Shown: piece by piece, positions 362-8,071 of the stretch
Layout: each line of letters opens with the position of its first letter
Position numbering within the stretch: position 1 is the first letter of the stretch
DNA from: Negativicutes bacterium
GTDB lineage: Bacteria > Bacillota_C > Negativicutes > Sporomusales_B > JARLHX01
Direction: 5' to 3'
Length of the DNA: 9,933 nucleotides
Assembly: GCA_031292015.1 (NCBI GenBank)
Contig: JARLHY010000166.1
Location: 1 to 9,933 of the forward strand
Notes under the pieces: model-generated
Told to the model about the DNA's origin: nothing
Seen by the model: the letters and a program-made list of their open reading frames with translations, nothing else
Databases searched by the model: none
Position numbers and translations under genes: made by a program

Positions 362-802
362 CTACTCCATCATCATGATCGCTTGTCCGGTGATCAAAAC
401 CCCGTCCTGCGTGGCAGGAAGCAAGGTAACCGTTTTGCTGATATCCTTCGGGTCTACAGTGGTCACATCCACCTTCCGGGGGTAGGTCGCCGTCACCGTT
501 ACCGTCGCCCCCGAGGTCCGCTGACTCTGTGCGGGAAGAGTGGTCACCGTAGGCTGCGGATTGGTATAGGTTGGCACCGCAGCTCTGGCAATATCCTGAA
601 TTTTTCCGTCCGTCGCCTCGGGGTGGACAATGGCGTAACGGGCTCCCACCCTGGCCGCTTCGGCCATGGCGAGATAATCATGAATCACTATGCCGAAAGC
701 GATCATACCCACCACCATCAGCAATAACACAGGCAGGACCAGGGCGAATTCCACCATCGACTGACCACGGTGGTTGCGGACATATTTACTGATCATCTGC
801 AT
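362..802 (-). CDS. tadE: TadE-like pseudopilin of the Flp/Tad pilus
   Basis: A 146-residue protein. I chose the ATG at 800-802 because it follows GGAGGTGA with 5 nt spacing; the frame is open further upstream (to 970), but that part has no ribosome site and does not look like protein. The N-terminus has the prepilin signature G|QSMVEF, with Gly13 before the cleavage site and Glu18 at mature position 5, followed by a hydrophobic helix at about 20-41. This is typical of TadE pseudopilins, which are cut by a TadV/CpaA-type prepilin peptidase and needed for pilus formation. After the helix comes the common MAEAARVGARYA stretch (46-57), then a Thr/Val-rich extracytoplasmic domain of about 90 residues. 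It is the first gene of a tadE-tadG operon, with a promoter at 888-916 and conserved upstream boxes at 916-955. No prepilin peptidase gene is in the window. Confidence 0.9.
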   Translation of the reverse strand: MQMISKYVRNHRGQSMVEFALVLPVLLLMVVGMIAFGIVIHDYLAMAEAARVGARYAIVHPEATDGKIQDIARAAVPTYTNPQPTVTTLPAQSQRTSGATVTVTATYPRKVDVTTVDPKDISKTVTLLPATQDGVLITGQAIMMME

Positions 803-887: not shown

Positions 888-916
888 ATTGTAGCATCTG
901 TGCAGCCACGGCTGCA
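888..916 (-). promoter_or_regulatory. tadE-tadG promoter, extended -10
   Basis: On the minus strand TACAAT (893 to 888) is preceded by TGC, giving an extended -10 (TGnTACAAT). The hexamer 17 bp upstream, TGCAGC (916-911), is a poor -35. The predicted start point is near 881, about 80 nt before the tadE ATG. The -10 context GCTACAATGG closely matches the flp and cpaB promoters (GTTACAATGA). The weak -35 suggests dependence on an activator binding just upstream. Confidence 0.6.
901..916. repeat. Perfect inverted repeat over the tadE -35 region
   Basis: TGCAGCC-AC-GGCTGCA is a 7-bp perfect dyad with a 2-bp centre. It ends 8 bp upstream of the -10 and covers the -35 position, where a bound repressor would block polymerase or an activator would touch it. 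It is absent from the flp and cpaB promoters, so it would add control specific to tadE. The dyad is visible in the sequence; its operator role is inferred. Confidence 0.45.
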
Positions 917-955
917 TCGTACCCAGGTCTTATTTGCATTGAGGACCCGGTCCCA
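916..955 (-). promoter_or_regulatory. Tandem regulatory boxes upstream of tadE
   Basis: Read on the minus strand, the distal box TGGGACCGGGTCCTCAAT (955 to 938) and proximal box TAAGACCTGGGTACGAT (932 to 916) start exactly 23 bp apart. GGTCCC (plus, 949-954) lies 56 bp upstream of the -10 edge at 893. The same pair recurs at identical distances upstream of flp and cpaB. The distal boxes all fit YGRGACCGNGNNYYCART. This is a candidate site for a transcriptional activator of the pilus regulon. Confidence 0.6.
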
Positions 956-1065
956 ACGTCCTCTGGGCATATCGTCCTAGCGCACCGGGTCCGAAAAGGA
1001 ACTCTCCAAAATCCCGCCCCAGCTTCATGACCCGGCCCGCCATGAAAAAACCCCGCGCAGGAGAG

Positions 1066-1096: not shown

Positions 1097-1116
1097 GTGG
1101 AGTCCACTGATTTTGA

Positions 1117-1277
1117 TTACAGCGCGGTGGCGATTGTAGAGAAGTAGGTGGCAATGTTCTGGCCGATAGTGGTCAGGGAGCCGATCACCACGATGTTACG
1201 AGCCCGAGAATCAAACCGTATTCCACCATGCCCTGACCTTTTTCGTTACGGAGAGCGTTGAGAATGAATGCCAACAT
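1117..1277 (-). pseudogene. flp: Flp major pilin gene with a one-base frameshift
   Basis: Encodes the small Flp-type IVb pilin, the structural subunit of the Tad pilus. The ATG (1275-1277) follows AAGGAGG with 8 nt spacing. The first 27 codons read as a normal Flp N-terminus: a leader ending KG, the cleavage signature G|QGMVEY (Glu at mature position 5), then GLILGLV. The frame then breaks: after GTA (1199-1197) it reads Thr-Ser-Trp and stops at 1187-1185, giving 30 residues. Shifting by one base, from AAC at 1197-1195, restores a typical Flp ending, NIVVIGSLTTIGQNIATYF and beyond, with a TAA at 1119-1117. One extra base near 1196-1198 (for example GTAAAC for GTAAC) would give an intact 53-residue pilin. 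No slippery heptamer is present, so programmed shifting is unlikely. It is either a real deletion or a sequence error. The promoter, ribosome site and terminator are all intact, which favours an error or a very recent mutation. Confidence 0.88.
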
Positions 1278-1332
1278 TTTTGCTTCCTCCTTATTATCGT
1301 TATTTTTGGGTTGTTGTCCTTTTGGTGATTTC

Positions 1333-1361
1333 ATTGTAACAAAAAAAAAACGGCCCTTCTA
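1333..1361 (-). promoter_or_regulatory. flp promoter, extended -10
   Basis: On the minus strand TGTTACAAT (1341 to 1333) forms an extended -10. The hexamer 17 bp upstream, TAGAAG (1361-1356), is a weak -35 lying in the loop of the degS terminator. The predicted start point is near 1326, giving a leader of about 50 nt to the flp ATG. The 11-mer GTTACAATGAA (1340-1330) is identical to that in the cpaB promoter (7100-7090). Confidence 0.65.
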
Positions 1362-1369
1362 TCGGCCGT
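1341..1369 (-). terminator. Rho-independent terminator of degS
   Basis: A 6-bp stem (ACGGCC at 1350-1355 with GGCCGT at 1364-1369) and an 8-nt loop are followed on the minus strand by ten T (1350-1341), 76 bp past the degS stop. The stem is short but GC-rich and the T run is long. The terminator overlaps the flp promoter: its loop contains the -35 position and its 5' arm lies in the proximal regulatory box. Confidence 0.8.
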
Positions 1370-1400
1370 AGGTCTCAATTTAACTGGGCTCACGGTCTCA
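1361..1400 (-). promoter_or_regulatory. Tandem regulatory boxes upstream of flp
   Basis: On the minus strand, TGAGACCGTGAGCCCAGT (1400 to 1383) and TGAGACCTACGGCCGAT (1377 to 1361) share TGAGACC and start 23 bp apart. GGTCTC (plus, 1394-1399) is 56 bp upstream of the -10 edge, as in the tadE and cpaB promoters. A further related element, TGGGACC on the minus strand at 1429-1423, lies about 30 bp upstream. The repeats are visible; binding by a common activator is inferred. Confidence 0.6.
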
Positions 1401-1444
1401 TTCCGGCCGGCGCCGGGTCCTAGGTCCCAGTCGGGGTTATAGTC

Positions 1445-2578
1445 CTACTTCAGCGGCACTTTGATGTATACCTTGGTTCCTTTGCCGTAACCCGACTTGA
1501 TGCTGATCTCTCCGTCCAGCAGCGTGATACGCTCCTGCATCCCCATGATGCCGTAACTGGAGTCGCCGATGTTCTCCGCGTCGGCGTCAAAGCCCCGGCC
1601 GTCGTCTTCGACAACAGCGCTGACCAGCTGGCGGCGAAAATCCAGCCGTACCCACACCGTTTTGGCCTGAGCATGTTTTTCCACGTTGGTCAGGGCCTCC
1701 TGCACGATCCGGAACAGCCCCACCTCGATATGAGAGTCCAGCCGTTTTTCATCGCCCATCACCATCAGTTCGACGATGGTACCATGCCGCTCTTTCATCG
1801 TGTCCATCACCCTGCGGATGGTCGGCACCAGCCCCAGGTCGTCCAGGGTCATCGGCCGCAGCCCGAAAATGATCTTGCGGGTTTCTTTCAATACTTCCCT
1901 GATCTGCACCTGCAAATCCTTGAGTTCTGCTTTGGCCCTGGTGATGTCGCTATCGACAAGCCGCTCGCATACCTCGGCCCGAAATACCACGTTGGCCATC
2001 GACTGAGCCGGACCGTCGTGGATCTCCCTGGCTACCCGGCGCCGCTCCTCTTCCTGGGCCCGGATGATCTTGGCGGCAAACTCCTGGCGCTGCTGCATCG
2101 ACTCGATCTGGGTGAGGACTCCGTCCATGTGATTGCCGAGAAAGCCCAGGGCGGCGCCGACCTGGCCGACCAGTCCCTCGGCCCGCCGCAGCGTATCCTG
2201 CAGATTGCGCAGCCGCTGCTCCAGATCGTCCCGCTGGCGGCGCAGGTTTTTCTCCTTCTCCCGCGACACCGCAAGCTCGACGCGTATCTGCTCAACTTCC
2301 TCGTAAGCCGCCCGCATATCTTCTTCGCTGTAGATCATGAAATTACGGTGAACCTCGGCCAGTTTCAACCGGGCCCGGCGCTCCCGTTTTTCCAGGTCGT
2401 CCACATGAAAAATGATGTCGGCGGTTTCCTGCTTGACCCGTTCAAGGTCTTTTCCCACATTATCCATTTCGTTGCGAGCCGCTTCATAAATGTCATAGAT
2501 CTGGGACTTGCCCTTCTCCACGGCCGCGATGGTTTGTTTGACGATTTTGTCGAGGACCTTGACGTCGATCTTCTGCAT
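1445..2578 (-). CDS. degS: DegS-type sensor histidine kinase (cytoplasmic)
   Basis: A 377-residue soluble kinase, close in length to Bacillus DegS (about 385). The N-terminal half (about 1-165) is the DegS sensor region, largely charged coiled coil with no membrane segment. The HisKA_3 dimerisation/phosphoacceptor block follows: AQEEERRRVAREIHDGPAQS, with His187. The HATPase domain shows the N box IVQEALTNVEKHA (Asn298), the G1 box VEDDGRGF (323-330) and the G2 box GIMGMQER (343-350). All catalytic features are present, so it should be active. DegS normally autophosphorylates and passes the phosphate to DegU, a LuxR-type regulator. No degU is adjacent here; the neighbours are tadB upstream and flp downstream. 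I prefer the ATG at 2576-2578, which sits behind AAGGG; a GTG at 2585-2587 in the same frame is the alternative (380 residues). Its terminator is at 1341-1369 and a promoter candidate is at 2598-2625. Confidence 0.9.
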   Translation of the reverse strand: MQKIDVKVLDKIVKQTIAAVEKGKSQIYDIYEAARNEMDNVGKDLERVKQETADIIFHVDDLEKRERRARLKLAEVHRNFMIYSEEDMRAAYEEVEQIRVELAVSREKEKNLRRQRDDLEQRLRNLQDTLRRAEGLVGQVGAALGFLGNHMDGVLTQIESMQQRQEFAAKIIRAQEEERRRVAREIHDGPAQSMANVVFRAEVCERLVDSDITRAKAELKDLQVQIREVLKETRKIIFGLRPMTLDDLGLVPTIRRVMDTMKERHGTIVELMVMGDEKRLDSHIEVGLFRIVQEALTNVEKHAQAKTVWVRLDFRRQLVSAVVEDDGRGFDADAENIGDSSYGIMGMQERITLLDGEISIKSGYGKGTKVYIKVPLK

Positions 2579-2597
2579 ACCCGCCACCCTTAAAAGG

Positions 2598-2688: not shown

Positions 2689-3660
2689 TTACAATCTTAT
2701 ATCCACGATTTTCCGAACCAGCATGATGCCGAAAAGCTGGCTGACTAACGCCGCCCCCAGCATCATCTTCCCGGCCGGATGAGTAAAAAGACCTTGCATA
2801 TAATCGGGATTCGCCACAGTCATGAGCAATCCCATGACAAATGGCATCAGGCCGACCACCAGGCCGGAAATACGGCCCTGAGCCGTCAGGGTCCGGATCT
2901 CGCCCTTTAGCTTGATGCGGGACCGGATGGTACCGGCGATGTTGTCCAGTACCTCGGCCAGATTGCCGCCCACCTGACGCTGGATGAGCACCGCCGTAAC
3001 CACCAGGTCCAGGTCGTCACTGCCCACCCGTCGTGCCATATTGTTCAGCGCGTCCTCGGTGGTGATCCCAAGGTTAATTTCCTTCAGCATTCGGGCGAAC
3101 TCCTGCGAGATCGGCGGCGTCATCTCTCTGGCGACCATCTCGATGGCCTGAAGAAAACTGTAGCCGGTGCGCAGCGAATTGGCAACAAGCACCAGGGCAT
3201 CACTCAGTTGATCATTGAGCTGCCTGATTCGCTTGGCTGCCTTGATGCTGAGAAACATCTTCGGCACGATGAAGCCGACAACGATACCGACTGATGTCAT
3301 CAGCGGATTGCCCCCGCTGATGACGAAGAGCACCGCCGCGCAGCCGACCATCGACCCTGCCCATACAGTGGCAAACTCAGACCCTCTCAGCGGCAAACCG
3401 GCCCGAATCAGCTTGTTTTCCAAGCCCCGCGACTGGCCCGACCATTCGAAATGGCGGCTCAACCGTCGGACGGTGGCCCGCCAGCCGGTCAGGGACGGCT
3501 TGTGGAGCAGTTCCGTTCGTACATCTGCAGTCGAAGAGGGCTCGATATAATGACCGATGCGGTCTCTGATCGTTTGTTTAGGCAGCACGGCGTAGTACCA
3601 GATCGCCGCGAGTCCAACCATAATGGTGAGAAAGGCGCTCAGCGCAATGAGTGCGACCAT
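2689..3660 (-). CDS. tadB: TadB inner-membrane platform protein of the Flp/Tad pilus
   Basis: A 323-residue membrane protein with the normal TadB length. An N-terminal helix (about 2-24) is followed by a cytoplasmic stretch, two helices (about 97-137), the T2SSF domain (about 153-280) and a final helix (about 296-317). Diagnostic features are LSDALVLVANSLRTGYSFLQ (152-171), the QRQVGGNLAEVLDNIA block (227-242), AQGRISGLVVGLMPF (260-274) and the VRKIVDIRL ending characteristic of TadB. TadB and TadC together form the platform that couples the TadA ATPase to pilin polymerisation. It begins 15 bp after tadZ with a GGGGGGAG ribosome site and ends the cpaB operon. Normally tadA/cpaF precedes it and tadC follows. 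Here neither does: the 110 bp after it hold only a terminator and the degS promoter. The T2SSF fold is certain, and TadB rather than TadC is likely from the C-terminus. Confidence 0.92.
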   Translation of the reverse strand: MVALIALSAFLTIMVGLAAIWYYAVLPKQTIRDRIGHYIEPSSTADVRTELLHKPSLTGWRATVRRLSRHFEWSGQSRGLENKLIRAGLPLRGSEFATVWAGSMVGCAAVLFVISGGNPLMTSVGIVVGFIVPKMFLSIKAAKRIRQLNDQLSDALVLVANSLRTGYSFLQAIEMVAREMTPPISQEFARMLKEINLGITTEDALNNMARRVGSDDLDLVVTAVLIQRQVGGNLAEVLDNIAGTIRSRIKLKGEIRTLTAQGRISGLVVGLMPFVMGLLMTVANPDYMQGLFTHPAGKMMLGAALVSQLFGIMLVRKIVDIRL

Positions 3661-3675
3661 TATATTCTCCCCCCT

Positions 3676-4878
3676 CTAGCCTAACAATCGCTTCAGCTTG
3701 TGCACCATGCCTTTGGCAGGTTCCTGCTTGCCGACCTGGCCGATGGACTGGGCCAGTTTGACGATATTCTGGGAGACAACCGCCTCCGGATTGGTTGCAA
3801 CAAAAGGCGTTCCCCGGTTGACCGAGGCAACCACCGTCTTGCCGTCGCTGGGCAGAGTGGCGGCAAAGCTGCGTTTCAGGCTTTCTTCCGCCTCCCGGAT
3901 GTCCATCCCGCCCTCTGAATTGGTCCTGTTGAGCACCAGACTGATCTTATCCTGGCTGTACTCCAGCGACTCCATAATCTCCAGGCACAATTTCACATTT
4001 TTAATTGTCGGCAGGTCCAGCGACGCCACTACCAGGATCTGGTTAGCCCCGTCCAAAGCGGCCAGGGTTGTTTCACTGAACGCCGGTACAGTATCGACGA
4101 TGATATATTGGTACATGGTACGCAGCGTCTTGAGCATCGTCGCCAAATGGGAACCGGATACCATTTCGGCCTGTTCCGGTCGCAGCGGCGCAGCCAACAC
4201 GTCGACCTGCTGGTTGTACTTGGTCAGATAACCGGCCAGAACCTTGTCGTCAAGACTGTCGATGTCGGCCACTACGTCGGCGATGGTCGCCCGGGGCAAG
4301 ATATTGAGAAACAGACTGACGTCGCCGAACTGCAGGTCGGCGTCGACGATGCAGACTCGCCCTTTGGTCTTGTCGGCCAGCGCCACCGCCAGGTTGGTGG
4401 CGATAGTCGTCTTGCCGATGCCGCCTTTGGCGCTGAAGACAGTGATTACCTTCCCTTCCTCCGGTGGCTTGGGTTCAAAAGCCACGACCTTGCGCCGTTG
4501 CTGCTGAGTGGCGTGCACCTGTTTCACCGCCTGAAGCAGCTCGTCGCCGGAGAAAGGCTTGGTGAGGTAATCTTTCGCGCCGGCGGTCATGGCTTTGCGC
4601 AAATATTCGCGCTCGGCCTGAACGCTCATAATGATGATTCCGGCCTTCGGCACCTCGGCGCTGAGCAGGCTGGTGGCGGTGATACCGTCCATACCAGGCA
4701 TGTTGATATCCATCAGAATAATGTCCGGTTGAACTTCCTTGGCCTGTTGGATGGCCGCCTCCGCCGCTGCCGCCTCGCCCACCACGGTTATACCGGGATG
4801 AAACTCGATCAGCTTGTGGATGTTTTCCCGTGTGGCCTGAACGTCATCAACGATCATCACTCTAATTTTTGCCGCCAT
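3676..4878 (-). CDS. tadZ: TadZ/CpaE: receiver domain fused to a MinD/ParA-like ATPase
   Basis: A 400-residue protein that localises Tad pilus assembly to a cell site. Residues about 4-125 are a response-regulator receiver with all key residues: Asp11/Asp12, phosphoacceptor Asp57 (LMDINMPG), Ser85, and Lys107 in TKPF. Many TadZ/CpaE receivers are degenerate, so an intact one is notable. A linker of about 20 residues leads to the ATPase: deviant Walker A KGGIGKTT (151-158) with the MinD signature lysine Lys151, switch region VDADLQFGD (178-186) and Walker B-like IIVDTVPAF (259-267). The C-terminus is basic (KLKRLL), possibly a membrane-binding tail. The ATG at 4876-4878 follows GGAGG with 8 nt spacing and overlaps the secretin gene by 17 bp, so translation is probably coupled. 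The tadA ATPase gene expected next is missing. Which kinase, if any, phosphorylates Asp57 is unknown; DegS is encoded two genes away. Confidence 0.93.
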   Translation of the reverse strand: MAAKIRVMIVDDVQATRENIHKLIEFHPGITVVGEAAAAEAAIQQAKEVQPDIILMDINMPGMDGITATSLLSAEVPKAGIIIMSVQAEREYLRKAMTAGAKDYLTKPFSGDELLQAVKQVHATQQQRRKVVAFEPKPPEEGKVITVFSAKGGIGKTTIATNLAVALADKTKGRVCIVDADLQFGDVSLFLNILPRATIADVVADIDSLDDKVLAGYLTKYNQQVDVLAAPLRPEQAEMVSGSHLATMLKTLRTMYQYIIVDTVPAFSETTLAALDGANQILVVASLDLPTIKNVKLCLEIMESLEYSQDKISLVLNRTNSEGGMDIREAEESLKRSFAATLPSDGKTVVASVNRGTPFVATNPEAVVSQNIVKLAQSIGQVGKQEPAKGMVHKLKRLLG

Positions 4879-6197: not shown

Positions 6198-7046
6198 TCA
6201 GTTTGCGTCAAGTTTGGTGCCGCGAATCACCTGGATTATAGGTCCCGGCGGGGCCGGAGCCTTGGCCGGCGGCGCCGTGGCCCGAGCCTCACTGTCACTG
6301 CCGCCTTTTGGGGAAGTTGCATATGATCCTACCAGTTCCTTTGGAGTGACGCCATTGGCCGCCACTGCCCCGCTGCTCGGTATATACGGCCGAAGAGCCA
6401 TACGGATCTTGCCCTTTTCGTCCGCCACTGTCAGCTTGGCGGCTTCTTCCGGAGTCACCGCCAGAGTCACGGTCGTTTTGCTGGTGGTCTCTTTCTTCTC
6501 CTTGCCGGCATCGGCCTGCCCGGCCTCGGTCTCGCGGTCGGCAGCCAGCACCAGCAGATTCTGCAGCACGATTTGGCTGACATTCTCGCCGACGGTGTTG
6601 GTGTCGAAGGTAACAAGAACATCGACATAGTCGCCAGCTTTGACGAAACCGGCCACACCCGTCACCTCGGTCACCGCAACAGTCATCGCCCGCTTATCAT
6701 TAGGAATGGTACCGGCGAATCCTCTTGTCTGACCCGGCACCGCCAACCGCCGCTGGGTAATCTGTTCGCCGGCGACAATCTGTTCGCGGCTGGTTACGCC
6801 GACTACATCGGCCGTCGCGACAATCGCTCCCGGCTGAATATATTCCGCCGGCACCGAACTCTCCTGCACCATTTCGGGCGTAATCACGGTTTTGGGCGGG
6901 ATATCGACTTTGGCTACGATCACCGGCTTGCCGGGCTTGATCGCCTGGTTGGCAACGCCCTTAAGATAGCTGTATACAAGCCCGGTAGTCAGCAAGCTCA
7001 AAATCAGAGCTATCACCATCAGCCCCCGGCCCGAAAGTTTTGCCAT
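6198..7046 (-). CDS. cpaB: CpaB/RcpC, SAF-domain periplasmic component of the Flp/Tad pilus
   Basis: A 282-residue protein. It has one N-terminal membrane anchor (about 8-27), a SAF domain (about 41-100: VIVAKVDIPPKTVITPEMV, then VVGVTSREQIVAGEQI), the CpaB/RcpC domain (about 110-225, with VKAGDYVDVLVTF at 135-147), and a Pro/Ala-rich segment (about 256-270) before a short C-terminus. CpaB/RcpC acts in the periplasm with the secretin and is thought to gate or stabilise the channel, possibly through SAF contact with peptidoglycan. The ATG at 7044-7046 follows GGGAGGG with 7 nt spacing; an in-frame TTG two codons upstream is too close to that site to be the start. It is the first gene of the cpaB-cpaC-tadZ-tadB operon, with a promoter at 7093-7121 and regulatory boxes at 7121-7160. 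A TTGCGTCA direct repeat (6193-6200 and 6203-6210) spans its stop codon. Confidence 0.93.
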   Translation of the reverse strand: MAKLSGRGLMVIALILSLLTTGLVYSYLKGVANQAIKPGKPVIVAKVDIPPKTVITPEMVQESSVPAEYIQPGAIVATADVVGVTSREQIVAGEQITQRRLAVPGQTRGFAGTIPNDKRAMTVAVTEVTGVAGFVKAGDYVDVLVTFDTNTVGENVSQIVLQNLLVLAADRETEAGQADAGKEKKETTSKTTVTLAVTPEEAAKLTVADEKGKIRMALRPYIPSSGAVAANGVTPKELVGSYATSPKGGSDSEARATAPPAKAPAPPGPIIQVIRGTKLDAN

Positions 7047-7092: not shown

Positions 7093-7121
7093 ATTGTAAC
7101 CTGCCTCGCTCTATTTCTCCA
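7093..7121 (-). promoter_or_regulatory. Promoter of the cpaB-cpaC-tadZ-tadB operon
   Basis: On the minus strand TACAAT (7098 to 7093) is the -10 and TGGAGA (7121-7116, spacing 17) matches the -35 consensus at 4 of 6 positions. The predicted start point is near 7086, about 40 nt before the cpaB ATG. GTTACAATGAA (7100-7090) is identical over 11 bp to the flp promoter. Confidence 0.65.
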
Positions 7122-7160
7122 TCCGACTGCCGCCTTAAACTGATTGAATCCTCGGTCTCG
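7121..7160 (-). promoter_or_regulatory. Tandem regulatory boxes upstream of cpaB
   Basis: On the minus strand the distal box CGAGACCGAGGATTCAAT (7160 to 7143) fits YGRGACCGNGNNYYCART fully, and TAAGGCGGCAGTCGGAT (7137 to 7121) is the more divergent proximal box, 23 bp on. GGTCTC (plus, 7154-7159) is 56 bp upstream of the -10 edge. This is the same layout as upstream of flp and tadE. Confidence 0.55.
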
Positions 7161-7166
7161 TTTTTG

Positions 7167-7185
7167 TGGGACTATCGGCCCAGTC
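7167..7185 (+). promoter_or_regulatory. Possible extra regulon box in plus orientation
   Basis: TGGGACTATCGGCCCAGTC matches the flp distal box at 13 of 19 positions, counting the shared GCCCAGT end. It begins 7 bp from the cpaB distal box but points toward the methyltransferase gene. No partner box or well-placed -10 follows it at the usual distance, so its function is uncertain. Confidence 0.25.
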
Positions 7186-7261: not shown

Positions 7262-7280
7262 TTGGGACTCAGGTCCCAAT
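7262..7280. repeat. Near-perfect palindrome resembling the regulon box
   Basis: TTGGGAC-TCAG-GTCCCAA is a 7-bp dyad with a 4-bp centre. Including the next T it matches the tadE distal box (TTGGGACCGGGTCCTCAAT) at 13 of 19 positions. It could be an operator for the plus-strand gene, about 100 bp upstream of its ATG, or a remote site for cpaB. The dyad is visible; the role is inferred. Confidence 0.4.
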
Positions 7281-7378
7281 TTTCTGGTCCTGGCAAAGCC
7301 AGAAGATAAACCCTCAGTCTCAAGGAACTACGAAAAATCAAATAGAATTTAAACATTGCAAGCGAAAGGAGGTTTGCC

Positions 7379-8071
7379 ATGTCTACGCAAAATATACGCT
7401 TCATCGCCAACGGGATCATCACCGTCTTTTCTTTTCTGGTTATTCTCGGGCGGTTGACGGAACCTTCTACTTCCGGCTATCACTGGCTGTGGGGAATACC
7501 GGCCCTGCTTATCCTCTTCCTTGACATCTACTTTTTGACAAAAAGTCTGCTGCGTGAACCAAAAGGAGCCGATACTTCGCTGACGGCTTTCATGATCAGC
7601 GTGGGCGGATCGCTGGGTTTTGGTTTCAGCGCCTTCGCTATTGGTTATCCGATCGTCGACTTCCTTCCAGTAGACGATCTCAACAACCTGGGCGGCTTTA
7701 TTTCCCTGGTCCCCTATCCGTTCATTATCTGGGCTCTGCTTTGTTTGAAGGACTGCATGACCATCATTCCCGAAGCTCACGCCGTGGTGGCCCGCGGCAT
7801 CTACCGCTATTCGCGCCACCCCTTGTATATGTGCTATATGCTTTGGGCATTCGCCAATATGATGATGTTTCCCTCTTTGCCGATGCTGGCCATCTCTGCC
7901 GCGCATATTGCCGTGTTGTTTATAAGGCTCAAGCGGGAAGAAAAGCTGCTGCTGGCGACCTTCACCGAGTACCGGAGTTACTACGAAACCACCGGCCTCA
8001 TCGGCACCTTCCGATTCCGAATGTTACTGAACGAAAAAGACAACAAAAAACCGGGGTTAGCAACTTGCTAA
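7379..8071 (+). CDS. Integral-membrane methyltransferase, isoprenylcysteine/phospholipid methyltransferase family
   Basis: A 230-residue protein with about five to six hydrophobic segments (about 7-24, 34-53, 69-90, 104-123, 150-183). The C-terminal half has the SAM-binding signature of the ICMT/PEMT superfamily: ARGIYRYSRHPLY with Arg-His-Pro at 146-148, then REEKLL (186-191) and EYRSYYETT (197-205). These enzymes use S-adenosylmethionine to methylate a lipid head group, a prenylated cysteine or another membrane-bound acceptor. The bacterial substrate cannot be told from sequence. The ATG at 7379 follows AAAGGAGGT with good spacing. It is transcribed divergently from the pilus operon and convergently with the decarboxylase gene, so it is a single-gene unit. 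Its last codons, including the TAA stop (8069-8071), lie inside the terminator hairpin. A link to pilus biogenesis is not shown. Confidence 0.8.
   Translation: MSTQNIRFIANGIITVFSFLVILGRLTEPSTSGYHWLWGIPALLILFLDIYFLTKSLLREPKGADTSLTAFMISVGGSLGFGFSAFAIGYPIVDFLPVDDLNNLGGFISLVPYPFIIWALLCLKDCMTIIPEAHAVVARGIYRYSRHPLYMCYMLWAFANMMMFPSLPMLAISAAHIAVLFIRLKREEKLLLATFTEYRSYYETTGLIGTFRFRMLLNEKDNKKPGLATC

What the first reader, a model, noticed from the sequence alone, without database searches (positions are those of the whole stretch)
1330..1400. Three pilus promoters share a fixed two-box operator layout
Minus-strand promoters of flp (-10 at 1338-1333), cpaB (7098-7093) and tadE (893-888) can be aligned without gaps. 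All have GYTACAATGR at the -10 and poor -35 hexamers. A distal box fitting YGRGACCGNGNNYYCART at all 18 positions lies at 1400-1383, 7160-7143 and 955-938. A proximal box, TRAGRCSKNNGKMSGAT-like, lies at 1377-1361, 7137-7121 and 932-916. The boxes start 23 bp apart in every case, and the GRGACC core ends 56 bp upstream of the -10 in every case. Identical geometry at all three pilus promoters, and its absence at degS and the decarboxylase, points to one activator of the pilus regulon. The motif was derived after the fact from three sites, and the 6-mer GGTCTC also occurs in coding sequence, so the evidence is the shared spacing, not the core alone. I do not recognise it as a known regulator's site.
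Basis: partly seen in the sequence, partly recalled or inferred. Interest (0 to 1): 0.78.

Follow-up and report, generated by a model that had tools for sequence, protein, structure and literature searches.

The report
Shared operator array controlling Tad pili
The promoters of a bacterial gripping-pilus gene cluster carry the same pair of regulator-binding boxes at nearly fixed positions, the layout recurs in many related species, and it most likely lets a DegS–DegU-type two-component switch turn the pilus genes on together.

Summary
All three promoters align as described. A matrix made only from them, run blind over 24 related loci, has its best hit at the flp or cpaB promoter in 12 of 14 Sporomusaceae-like loci. 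In 28 genomes of the order, 39 of 40 strong hits of a broader promoter model lie beside Tad genes.

Both boxes are copies of one inverted repeat, TRRGAC-N4-GTCYNA. The proximal copy is centred near -43, where activators touch RNA polymerase; the distal copy lies mostly 22-23 bp further up. The core is that of the DosR/DevR box.

The likely reader is a DegU-like NarL/FixJ response regulator, partner of the DegS kinase encoded inside the pilus locus. DegS and DegU co-occur (94 of 99 carriers). Among genomes not used to build the model, strong boxes appear where degS lies in the Tad locus (13 of 14) and not where it lies elsewhere (0 of 12), though distance confounds this. In a Desulfovirgula contig degS, degU, two boxes and flp are contiguous, although the broader model missed that genome. 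Boxes also precede two-partner-secretion genes in three genomes. Binding and activation are not shown.

The parts
888..893 (-). -10 element TACAAT of the tadE promoter (TGC before it)
915..934 (-). proximal box of tadE, AATAAGACCTGGGTACGATG
   Evidence: rank 1 with a matrix from non-window promoters
938..955 (-). distal box of tadE, TGGGACCGGGTCCTCAAT
963..980 (-). possible third, weaker dyad copy upstream of tadE, CTAGGACGATATGCCCAG
   Evidence: 5 of 14 positions differ; could be chance
1333..1338 (-). -10 element TACAAT of the flp promoter
1360..1379 (-). proximal box of flp, ATTGAGACCTACGGCCGATA
   Evidence: rank 2
1383..1402 (-). distal box of flp, AATGAGACCGTGAGCCCAGT
1413..1430 (-). third dyad copy upstream of flp, CTGGGACCTAGGACCCGG
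   Evidence: 4 of 14 differ
7093..7098 (-). -10 element TACAAT of the cpaB promoter
7120..7139 (-). proximal box of cpaB, TTTAAGGCGGCAGTCGGATG
   Evidence: rank 3
7143..7162 (-). distal box of cpaB, AACGAGACCGAGGATTCAAT
7166..7183 (-). third dyad copy upstream of cpaB, CTGGGCCGATAGTCCCAC
   Evidence: 3 of 14 differ; a GTCCYA-ended box recurs near here in several relatives
7262..7279 (.). perfect dyad TTGGGACTCAGGTCCCAA between cpaB and the divergent ICMT-like gene
7305..7324 (+). further dyad-like copy GATAAACCCTCAGTCTCAAG, 44 bp from the perfect dyad; possible proximal box of the ICMT-like gene (weak)
   Evidence: symmetrised matrix
1445..2587 (-). degS: DegS-type sensor kinase inside the Tad locus
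   Evidence: Pfam DegS, HisKA_3, HATPase_c
1115..1277 (-). flp pilin gene; frame departs from relatives after about 25 codons and stops at codon 31 in this contig
362..802 (-). tadE minor pilin
   Evidence: Pfam TadE
6198..7046 (-). cpaB (RcpC), first gene of the cpaB-cpaC-cpaE-tadC-degS run
   Evidence: Pfam RcpC, SAF

Best explanation
Each pilus promoter carries a tandem array of one ~18-bp inverted-repeat operator (TRRGAC-N4-GTCYNA). A dimer on the proximal copy (centre about -43) contacts RNA polymerase at a promoter with a weak -35 and a good, often extended, -10; a second dimer 22-23 bp upstream (about two helical turns) cooperates with it. The effect is joint induction of the assembly genes (cpaB operon), the pilin (flp) and the minor pilins (tadE), and in some species of a two-partner-secretion adhesin. 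Shown by computation: the array, its dyad symmetry, its geometry, its conservation and its near-restriction to Tad promoters in the genomes searched. Inferred: which protein binds, that it activates, and that DegS is its kinase. Not known: the signal. The window's own genome is not held, so its DegU gene was not seen.
For: Recurrence in other genomes and the reverse matrix test. Dyad with 4-bp centre, column permutation p=0.0025, as expected for a LuxR/NarL HTH dimer. Fixed phase to the -10: 36-37 bp in 40 of 42. degS lies in the locus in the window and in 13 of the 14 Sporomusaceae-like loci; the 14th (L015) ends before it. The DegU-like protein is the only GerE-type response regulator at 70% or more in all three genomes compared; 25 of 31 GerE matches were compared, the six left out being weak. 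It has receiver and GerE domains. DegS and DegU co-occur: 26 of 28 order genomes have both and the same 2 lack both; of 200 class genomes 94 have both, 5 one, 101 neither. Tad-linked degS goes with strong boxes: 26 of 27 linked genomes (13 of 14 not used to build the model) against 0 of 12 unlinked at E<=1e-3 (recount). Desulfovirgula L018 (Clostridia): degS 1607-2746, degU 2767-3432, two boxes about 3530-3575, flp 3644. The DegU recognition helix (SEKTVKNHL in 20 of 21 loci) carries, by my mapping, the residues named as base contacts in DosR (Lys179, Lys182, Asn183; PMC4082495 passage) and modelled as such in Listeria DegU (K194, K197, N198; PMC9263151 passages). DosR reads TTSGGGACTWWAGTCCCSAA (PMC2275270 passages).
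Against: No binding or expression data. B. subtilis DegU is reported to read GNCATTTA (PMC2245950 passages); no promoter box here has it (one match in the window, inside degS), so a similar recognition helix does not fix the site. The broader model R1 had no match at E<=0.5 in the Desulfovirgula genome; its flp boxes were found with the window matrix, and the distance to its best -10 is 32, not 36-37 bp. The Lucifera two-partner-secretion promoter was likewise not returned by R1. Two MAGs with strong boxes (G009, G045) have no DegU match above 44% identity, perhaps because they are incomplete. G015 has a second, divergent Tad locus (L016) with its own linked degS (42%) and no box hit; linked G050 has only a weak hit (0.13). 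G065 has a flp box (E 0.0018) with degS on another contig. degU is unlinked from the pilus genes in the Negativicutes genomes looked at, and upstream of it 18 of 20 loci score under 10 bits; the two above (L086, L088) look like terminator hairpins. The linked/unlinked contrast is confounded with distance from the model's training set, and only 40 of the 70 CpaB-bearing class genomes were given to the model. DegS and DegU also occur in genomes without Tad, so they have other jobs.
Confidence: 0.74

Rival explanations
1. The same operators are read by another regulator, for example a different NarL/FixJ regulator or a single-domain GerE protein, and DegS in the locus is incidental or phosphorylates the receiver domain of CpaE.
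For: CpaE in the locus has its own receiver domain. One relative (G003) has a 75-aa GerE-only protein with the same SEKTVKNH helix (L031). DegU's reported B. subtilis site differs. G009 and G045 have boxes but no good DegU match.
Against: Among the 25 GerE proteins of G001, G002 and G003 printed, only the DegU-like ones and L031 show the EKTVKN helix, and L031 has no full-length counterpart in G001 or G002. degS-degU-boxes-flp contiguity in L018. Regulators without a GerE domain were not surveyed.
Confidence: 0.18
2. The boxes are repressor operators or sites of a non-NarL factor (for example a LexA-like GAAC-N4-GTTC site, recalled); pilus genes are on by default.
For: A dyad with a 4-bp centre is not exclusive to NarL-type proteins.
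Against: The proximal site is phased to the -10 at 36-37 bp and lies upstream of it, not over the -10 or start; tandem upstream copies suit activation.
Confidence: 0.06
3. Chance, or shared sequence from recent duplication of promoters, or hairpin/terminator structure.
For: GTCC-rich inverted repeats also form terminators: the flp proximal box and spacer in the window overlap a terminator-like hairpin, and the sites before degU in L086 and L088 are hairpins.
Against: Matrix tests in other genomes, and the boxes keep their register in many genomes while the spacer between box and -10 varies.
Confidence: 0.02

Closest known systems
DosR/DevR box and regulon (Mycobacterium; NarL/FixJ response regulator)
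   Same: Inverted repeat with GGGAC-N4-GTCCC core (TTSGGGACTWWAGTCCCSAA), one to four motifs per unit (PMC2275270 passages), and the same base-contact residues in the recognition helix by my mapping.
   Different: The kinase here is DegS-type by Pfam (DegS, HisKA_3, HATPase_c); DosS is described as heme-containing (start of abstract of PMC4082495 in the listing). The targets here are pilus genes. The likeness is in site and helix; descent was not tested.
DegS-DegU of Bacillus subtilis / DegU of Listeria
   Same: DegS Pfam architecture; DegU-like receiver plus GerE protein; Listeria DegU is described as a positive regulator of motility (PMC9263151 passages).
   Different: Reported DegU motif GNCATTTA as inverted repeat N7 or direct repeats (PMC2245950 passages); here GAC-N4-GTC dyads. 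degS sits in a Tad locus; in the Negativicutes genomes looked at degU is elsewhere.
PprA-PprB of Pseudomonas aeruginosa
   Same: A two-component system drives the pilin gene: flp induction under carbon starvation was lost in a pprB mutant (PMC6821963 passages).
   Different: A different putative site (GGCTAATAC in that paper); orthology with DegS-DegU was not tested. That PprB is NarL-type is recalled.
ComA box of B. subtilis (TTGCGG-N4-CCGCAA, recalled)
   Same: NarL-family dyad with a 4-bp centre.
   Different: Different half-site and regulon.

Membership tests
DegS-DegU two-component system | DegS sensor: DegS N-terminal domain, HisKA_3 and HATPase_c | tested here: met
   window 2587-1445, Pfam; also L018
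DegS-DegU two-component system | DegU: receiver plus GerE/LuxR HTH, orthologue present with degS | tested here: met
   Pfam on L018, L025 and L026 proteins; co-occurrence in relatives; could not be looked for in the window's own genome
DegS-DegU two-component system | DegU recognition motif GNCATTTA at targets | tested here: not met
   one match in the window, inside degS, none in the promoters; so the B. subtilis site is not used here
DegS-DegU two-component system | DegU binds these promoters | not testable with these tools
   needs gel shift, footprint or DAP-seq
DosR/DevR regulon | GGGACT-WW-AGTCCC palindrome | tested here: inconclusive
   core GAC-N4-GTC met; best window copies differ at 2 of 14 positions; exact RGACTWWAGTCY in 11 of 144 loci, some of them overlapping loci or terminator hairpins
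DosR/DevR regulon | heme-containing DosS/DosT-type sensor | tested here: not met
   the kinase in the locus has Pfam DegS, HisKA_3 and HATPase domains only
PprA-PprB control of Tad pili | PprB recognition site (GGCTAATAC-like) | not tested
   site seen in PMC6821963 passages; no search made for it

The most novel reading that the evidence does not exclude
In diderm Firmicutes, and in at least one Desulfovirgula lineage outside Negativicutes, a DegS-DegU system with DosR-type operators is a dedicated surface-attachment switch: it turns on Tad pili together with two-partner-secretion adhesins, and perhaps also CheX, HD-domain (c-di-GMP) and small-RNA outputs, from a rigid -43/-66 operator array.
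Probability: 0.45. Interest if true: 0.65.

Novelty: new variant of a known kind. Interest (0 to 1): 0.52.

Why it matters
Tad pili drive tight surface attachment, but the listings of my literature searches (open-licence papers, first 8-12 titles of each) showed no regulator for them in Negativicutes. If right, a portable 70-bp promoter signature predicts the attachment regulon in genomes of this group, names kinase and regulator, and shows a DegU-type protein that reads a site unlike the B. subtilis one. It also makes a clean test of how NarL-type recognition helices that look alike read different sites.

Tried and rejected
Autoregulation of degU: 20 of 21 DegU loci examined upstream of degU (L094 gave no start); only L086 and L088 scored above 10 bits and both look like hairpins. 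Rfam on the window, L142, L143 and L018: no match at gathering thresholds. ICMT-like gene as a general member: homologue in only 4 of 28 order genomes. Plain mismatch counting of the perfect dyad was a weak statistic over the whole window (3 matches with up to 3 mismatches against 0.6 expected), so I moved to matrices. My first hand-set -10 anchors were one base off for many relatives, so the ranks printed at my anchors are poor; the blind top hits are what I use. My first extraction of GerE proteins read minus-strand matches wrongly; one search replaces it. Weak extra targets not relied on: CheX (L078, E 0.076), S. ovata short ORF (L080, E 0.2), HD-domain gene (L143, E 0.036).

Limits: the genome search scored at most 150 of roughly 160-880 first-look candidates per genome for the model, and at most 9 (DegS), 14 (DegU) and 12 (CpaB) per genome in the 200-genome searches, so misses are possible. 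CpaB status of G017 was not shown. Of the 70 CpaB-bearing class genomes 40 were given to the model (20, 20), chosen by me from the more similar ones. The 43 promoters were chosen because they carry the box, so they speak for spacing, not for frequency. The linked/unlinked tally leaves out G015 (two Tad loci: one boxed, with the contig ending before degS; one with linked degS and no box hit).

Full report
The window is a 9.9-kb contig with a Negativicutes-like Tad (tight adherence) pilus locus on the minus strand: cpaB, cpaC, cpaE with an N-terminal receiver domain, tadC, a DegS-type sensor kinase, flp, tadE and tadG, with a divergent ICMT-like methyltransferase and a decarboxylase upstream. 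No whole genome is held for it. The named CpaB relatives in the protein search are mostly Negativicutes, Sporomusaceae and unnamed Firmicutes MAGs (best 120 of 837 listed). A scan of genome contigs gave 24 loci, 14 of them Sporomusaceae-like, mostly with the gene order cpaB-cpaC-cpaE-tadC-degS-flp-tadE-tadG-tadA-tadB where the contig allowed; Lucifera (L010) has the locus split.

Aligned on the -10, the promoters share the two boxes without gaps. The distal pattern and the -10 pattern each occur three times in the window, at the three promoters only.

The boxes are one motif. A perfect dyad, TTGGGACTCAGGTCCCAA, lies at 7262-7279, and the distal, proximal and a third upstream box of each promoter are degenerate copies of it. 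Across 43 promoters the proximal box reads AWTAAGACYNNNGKMYGATG, with its best symmetry centre at GAC-N4-GTC; permuting the columns of one half gives p=0.0025. The distal box is less conserved than the proximal one, and its best centre is not the same.

Tests in other genomes. A matrix from the three window promoters alone has its top hit at the flp or cpaB promoter in 12 of 14 Sporomusaceae-like loci. The reverse test, a matrix from 40 other promoters, ranks the window proximal boxes 1-3. A 70-position sequence model (R1) from 23 promoters, three of them the window's, was run on 28 genomes of the order. All 20 with CpaB have a hit at E<=7e-5, 10 of them not used to build the model. Of the 7 shown to lack full-length CpaB, none reached 1e-3 (G021 0.008 before a TadE-like gene beside degS, G032 0.0245 and G023 0.0499 before two-partner-secretion genes); one more (G017) had no hit and no shown CpaB status. 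Of 40 hits at E<=1e-3, 39 lie beside Tad genes by coordinates and one (G030 contig 68) does not. In G053 five hits, from 7e-7 to 0.086, fall on three dispersed flp paralogues, a tadE and a tadG. In Lucifera the flp (3.3e-6) and tadC (0.0039) genes on another contig each have their own boxes.

Exceptions. By reading, the cpaB promoters of L003, L006, L007, L011 and L014 lack the proximal box, L005 cpaB is poor, L002 flp lacks it, and 7 of 10 loci read show no box pair before tadE, where there may be no separate promoter.

Geometry. From the base that opens RGAC in the proximal box to the first base of the -10 is 36 or 37 bp in 40 of 42 promoters; 26 of 42 have a TGn extended -10. Taking the -10 as -12 to -7, the proximal dyad is centred near -43 and the distal near -66. 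This is the usual class II plus upstream-site arrangement of activators (established knowledge); activation is inferred.

Which regulator. DegS is in the locus. Of 25 GerE-domain proteins compared in three relatives' genomes (of 31 matches; six weak ones left out), one DegU-like response regulator is shared at 70-72% identity, while the other group seen in all three is at 46-61%. DegS and DegU co-occur in 26 of 28 order genomes and are both absent from the same two; in 200 class genomes 94 have both, 4 only DegS, 1 only DegU, 101 neither. For the four DegS-only genomes a relaxed search found only 41-44% matches in three and none in one. Strong boxes go with degS lying in the Tad locus: 26 of 27 linked genomes against 0 of 12 unlinked; leaving out the genomes used for the model, 13 of 14 against 0 of 12. 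One unlinked genome, G065, does have a real flp box at E 0.0018, the unlinked genomes are on the whole more distant, and G015 (left out) has a second, divergent Tad locus with linked degS and no box hit. The best link is the Desulfovirgula contig L018 (class Clostridia in NCBI's taxonomy): degS (1607-2746) and degU (2767-3432) lie directly before a hairpin that looks like a terminator, two boxes and flp (3644-3841), followed by a prepilin peptidase, tadE, tadG, cpaB, cpaE and tadA (some names by position and resemblance). The L018 boxes were the top hit of the window matrix, and its DegU is 56% identical to that of S. malonica. Against this, R1 had no match at E<=0.5 in that genome, and its best -10 lies at 32 bp.

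Site and helix. DosR of Mycobacterium reads TTSGGGACTWWAGTCCCSAA (PMC2275270, passages), the same GAC-N4-GTC core. Its base contacts are Lys179, Lys182 and Asn183 (PMC4082495, passages). Listeria DegU was modelled on the DosR-DNA complex with K194, K197 and N198 as base binders (PMC9263151, passages). The DegU-like proteins here have SEKTVKNHL in 20 of 21 loci, which I map onto these residues. Against a simple reading, B. subtilis DegU is reported to prefer GNCATTTA (PMC2245950, passages), which is absent from these promoters.

Regulon beyond pili. Two-box promoters with the same spacing (36-37 and 22-23 bp) precede ShlB/FhaC-type transporters in Lucifera (L010), G032 (L115) and G023 (L116); in Lucifera the next gene has a TPS secretion domain. 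R1 E-values were weak for the latter two (0.0245, 0.0499) and R1 did not return the Lucifera one, which came from the window matrix, but the gene family recurs in all three. CheX, an HD-domain gene and a short unit without an ORF are single weak hits.

Precedent and novelty. A two-component system driving flp is known from PprA-PprB (PMC6821963, passages). Searches for DegU with Tad or tight adherence, Sporomusa with Tad, DegU with Sporomusa, and Tad regulation in Negativicutes or Firmicutes listed nothing that describes this (listings; open-licence papers only; 12 of 109 and 10 of 85 papers were listed). I rate it a new variant of a known kind.

Noticed in passing
window 1115-1277 (-): The flp pilin frame departs from relatives after about 25 codons and stops at codon 31 in this contig, while flp of the relatives read is open; a sequencing/assembly slip or a pseudogene.
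   Followed up: partly
window 7379-8071 (+): An ICMT-like methyltransferase is divergent from cpaB with a perfect dyad and a second copy upstream of it; related genes lie between degS and flp in L002 and just after flp in L120 and L129 (Pfam ICMT/PEMT). Homologue in 4 of 28 order genomes. A possible pilin-modifying enzyme.
   Followed up: partly
L010 16364-16560, L115, L116: Two-box promoters before ShlB/FhaC-type two-partner-secretion transporters in three genomes, two of which lack CpaB.
   Followed up: yes
L142 (G030 contig 68): A two-box promoter (E 6.7e-4) followed, about 50 bp after its -10-like element, by a strong GC-rich hairpin with a short T-rich tail and no ORF until after it: a candidate small RNA. 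No Rfam match.
   Followed up: partly
L143 (G029 contig 2): Box pair with TAGGACTATAGTCCC before an HD-domain (HD_5) gene, possible c-di-GMP link; weak (E 0.036).
   Followed up: partly
L031 (G003 contig 62): A 75-aa GerE-only protein with the same SEKTVKNH helix as the DegU-like regulator; could compete for the boxes.
   Followed up: no
L086 2300-2335; window 1369-1350: GTCCT/GTCTTA inverted repeats also occur as terminator-like hairpins, which can mimic box pairs.
   Followed up: partly
L012: A MAG labelled Acholeplasmataceae carries a cpaB-cpaC-cpaE-tadC-flp run with 48-50% CpaB identity and no degS between tadC and flp; perhaps mis-binned.
   Followed up: no
window 3676-4878 (-): CpaE carries an N-terminal response-regulator receiver domain, also in L018; a possible second phospho-target of DegS.
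   Followed up: no
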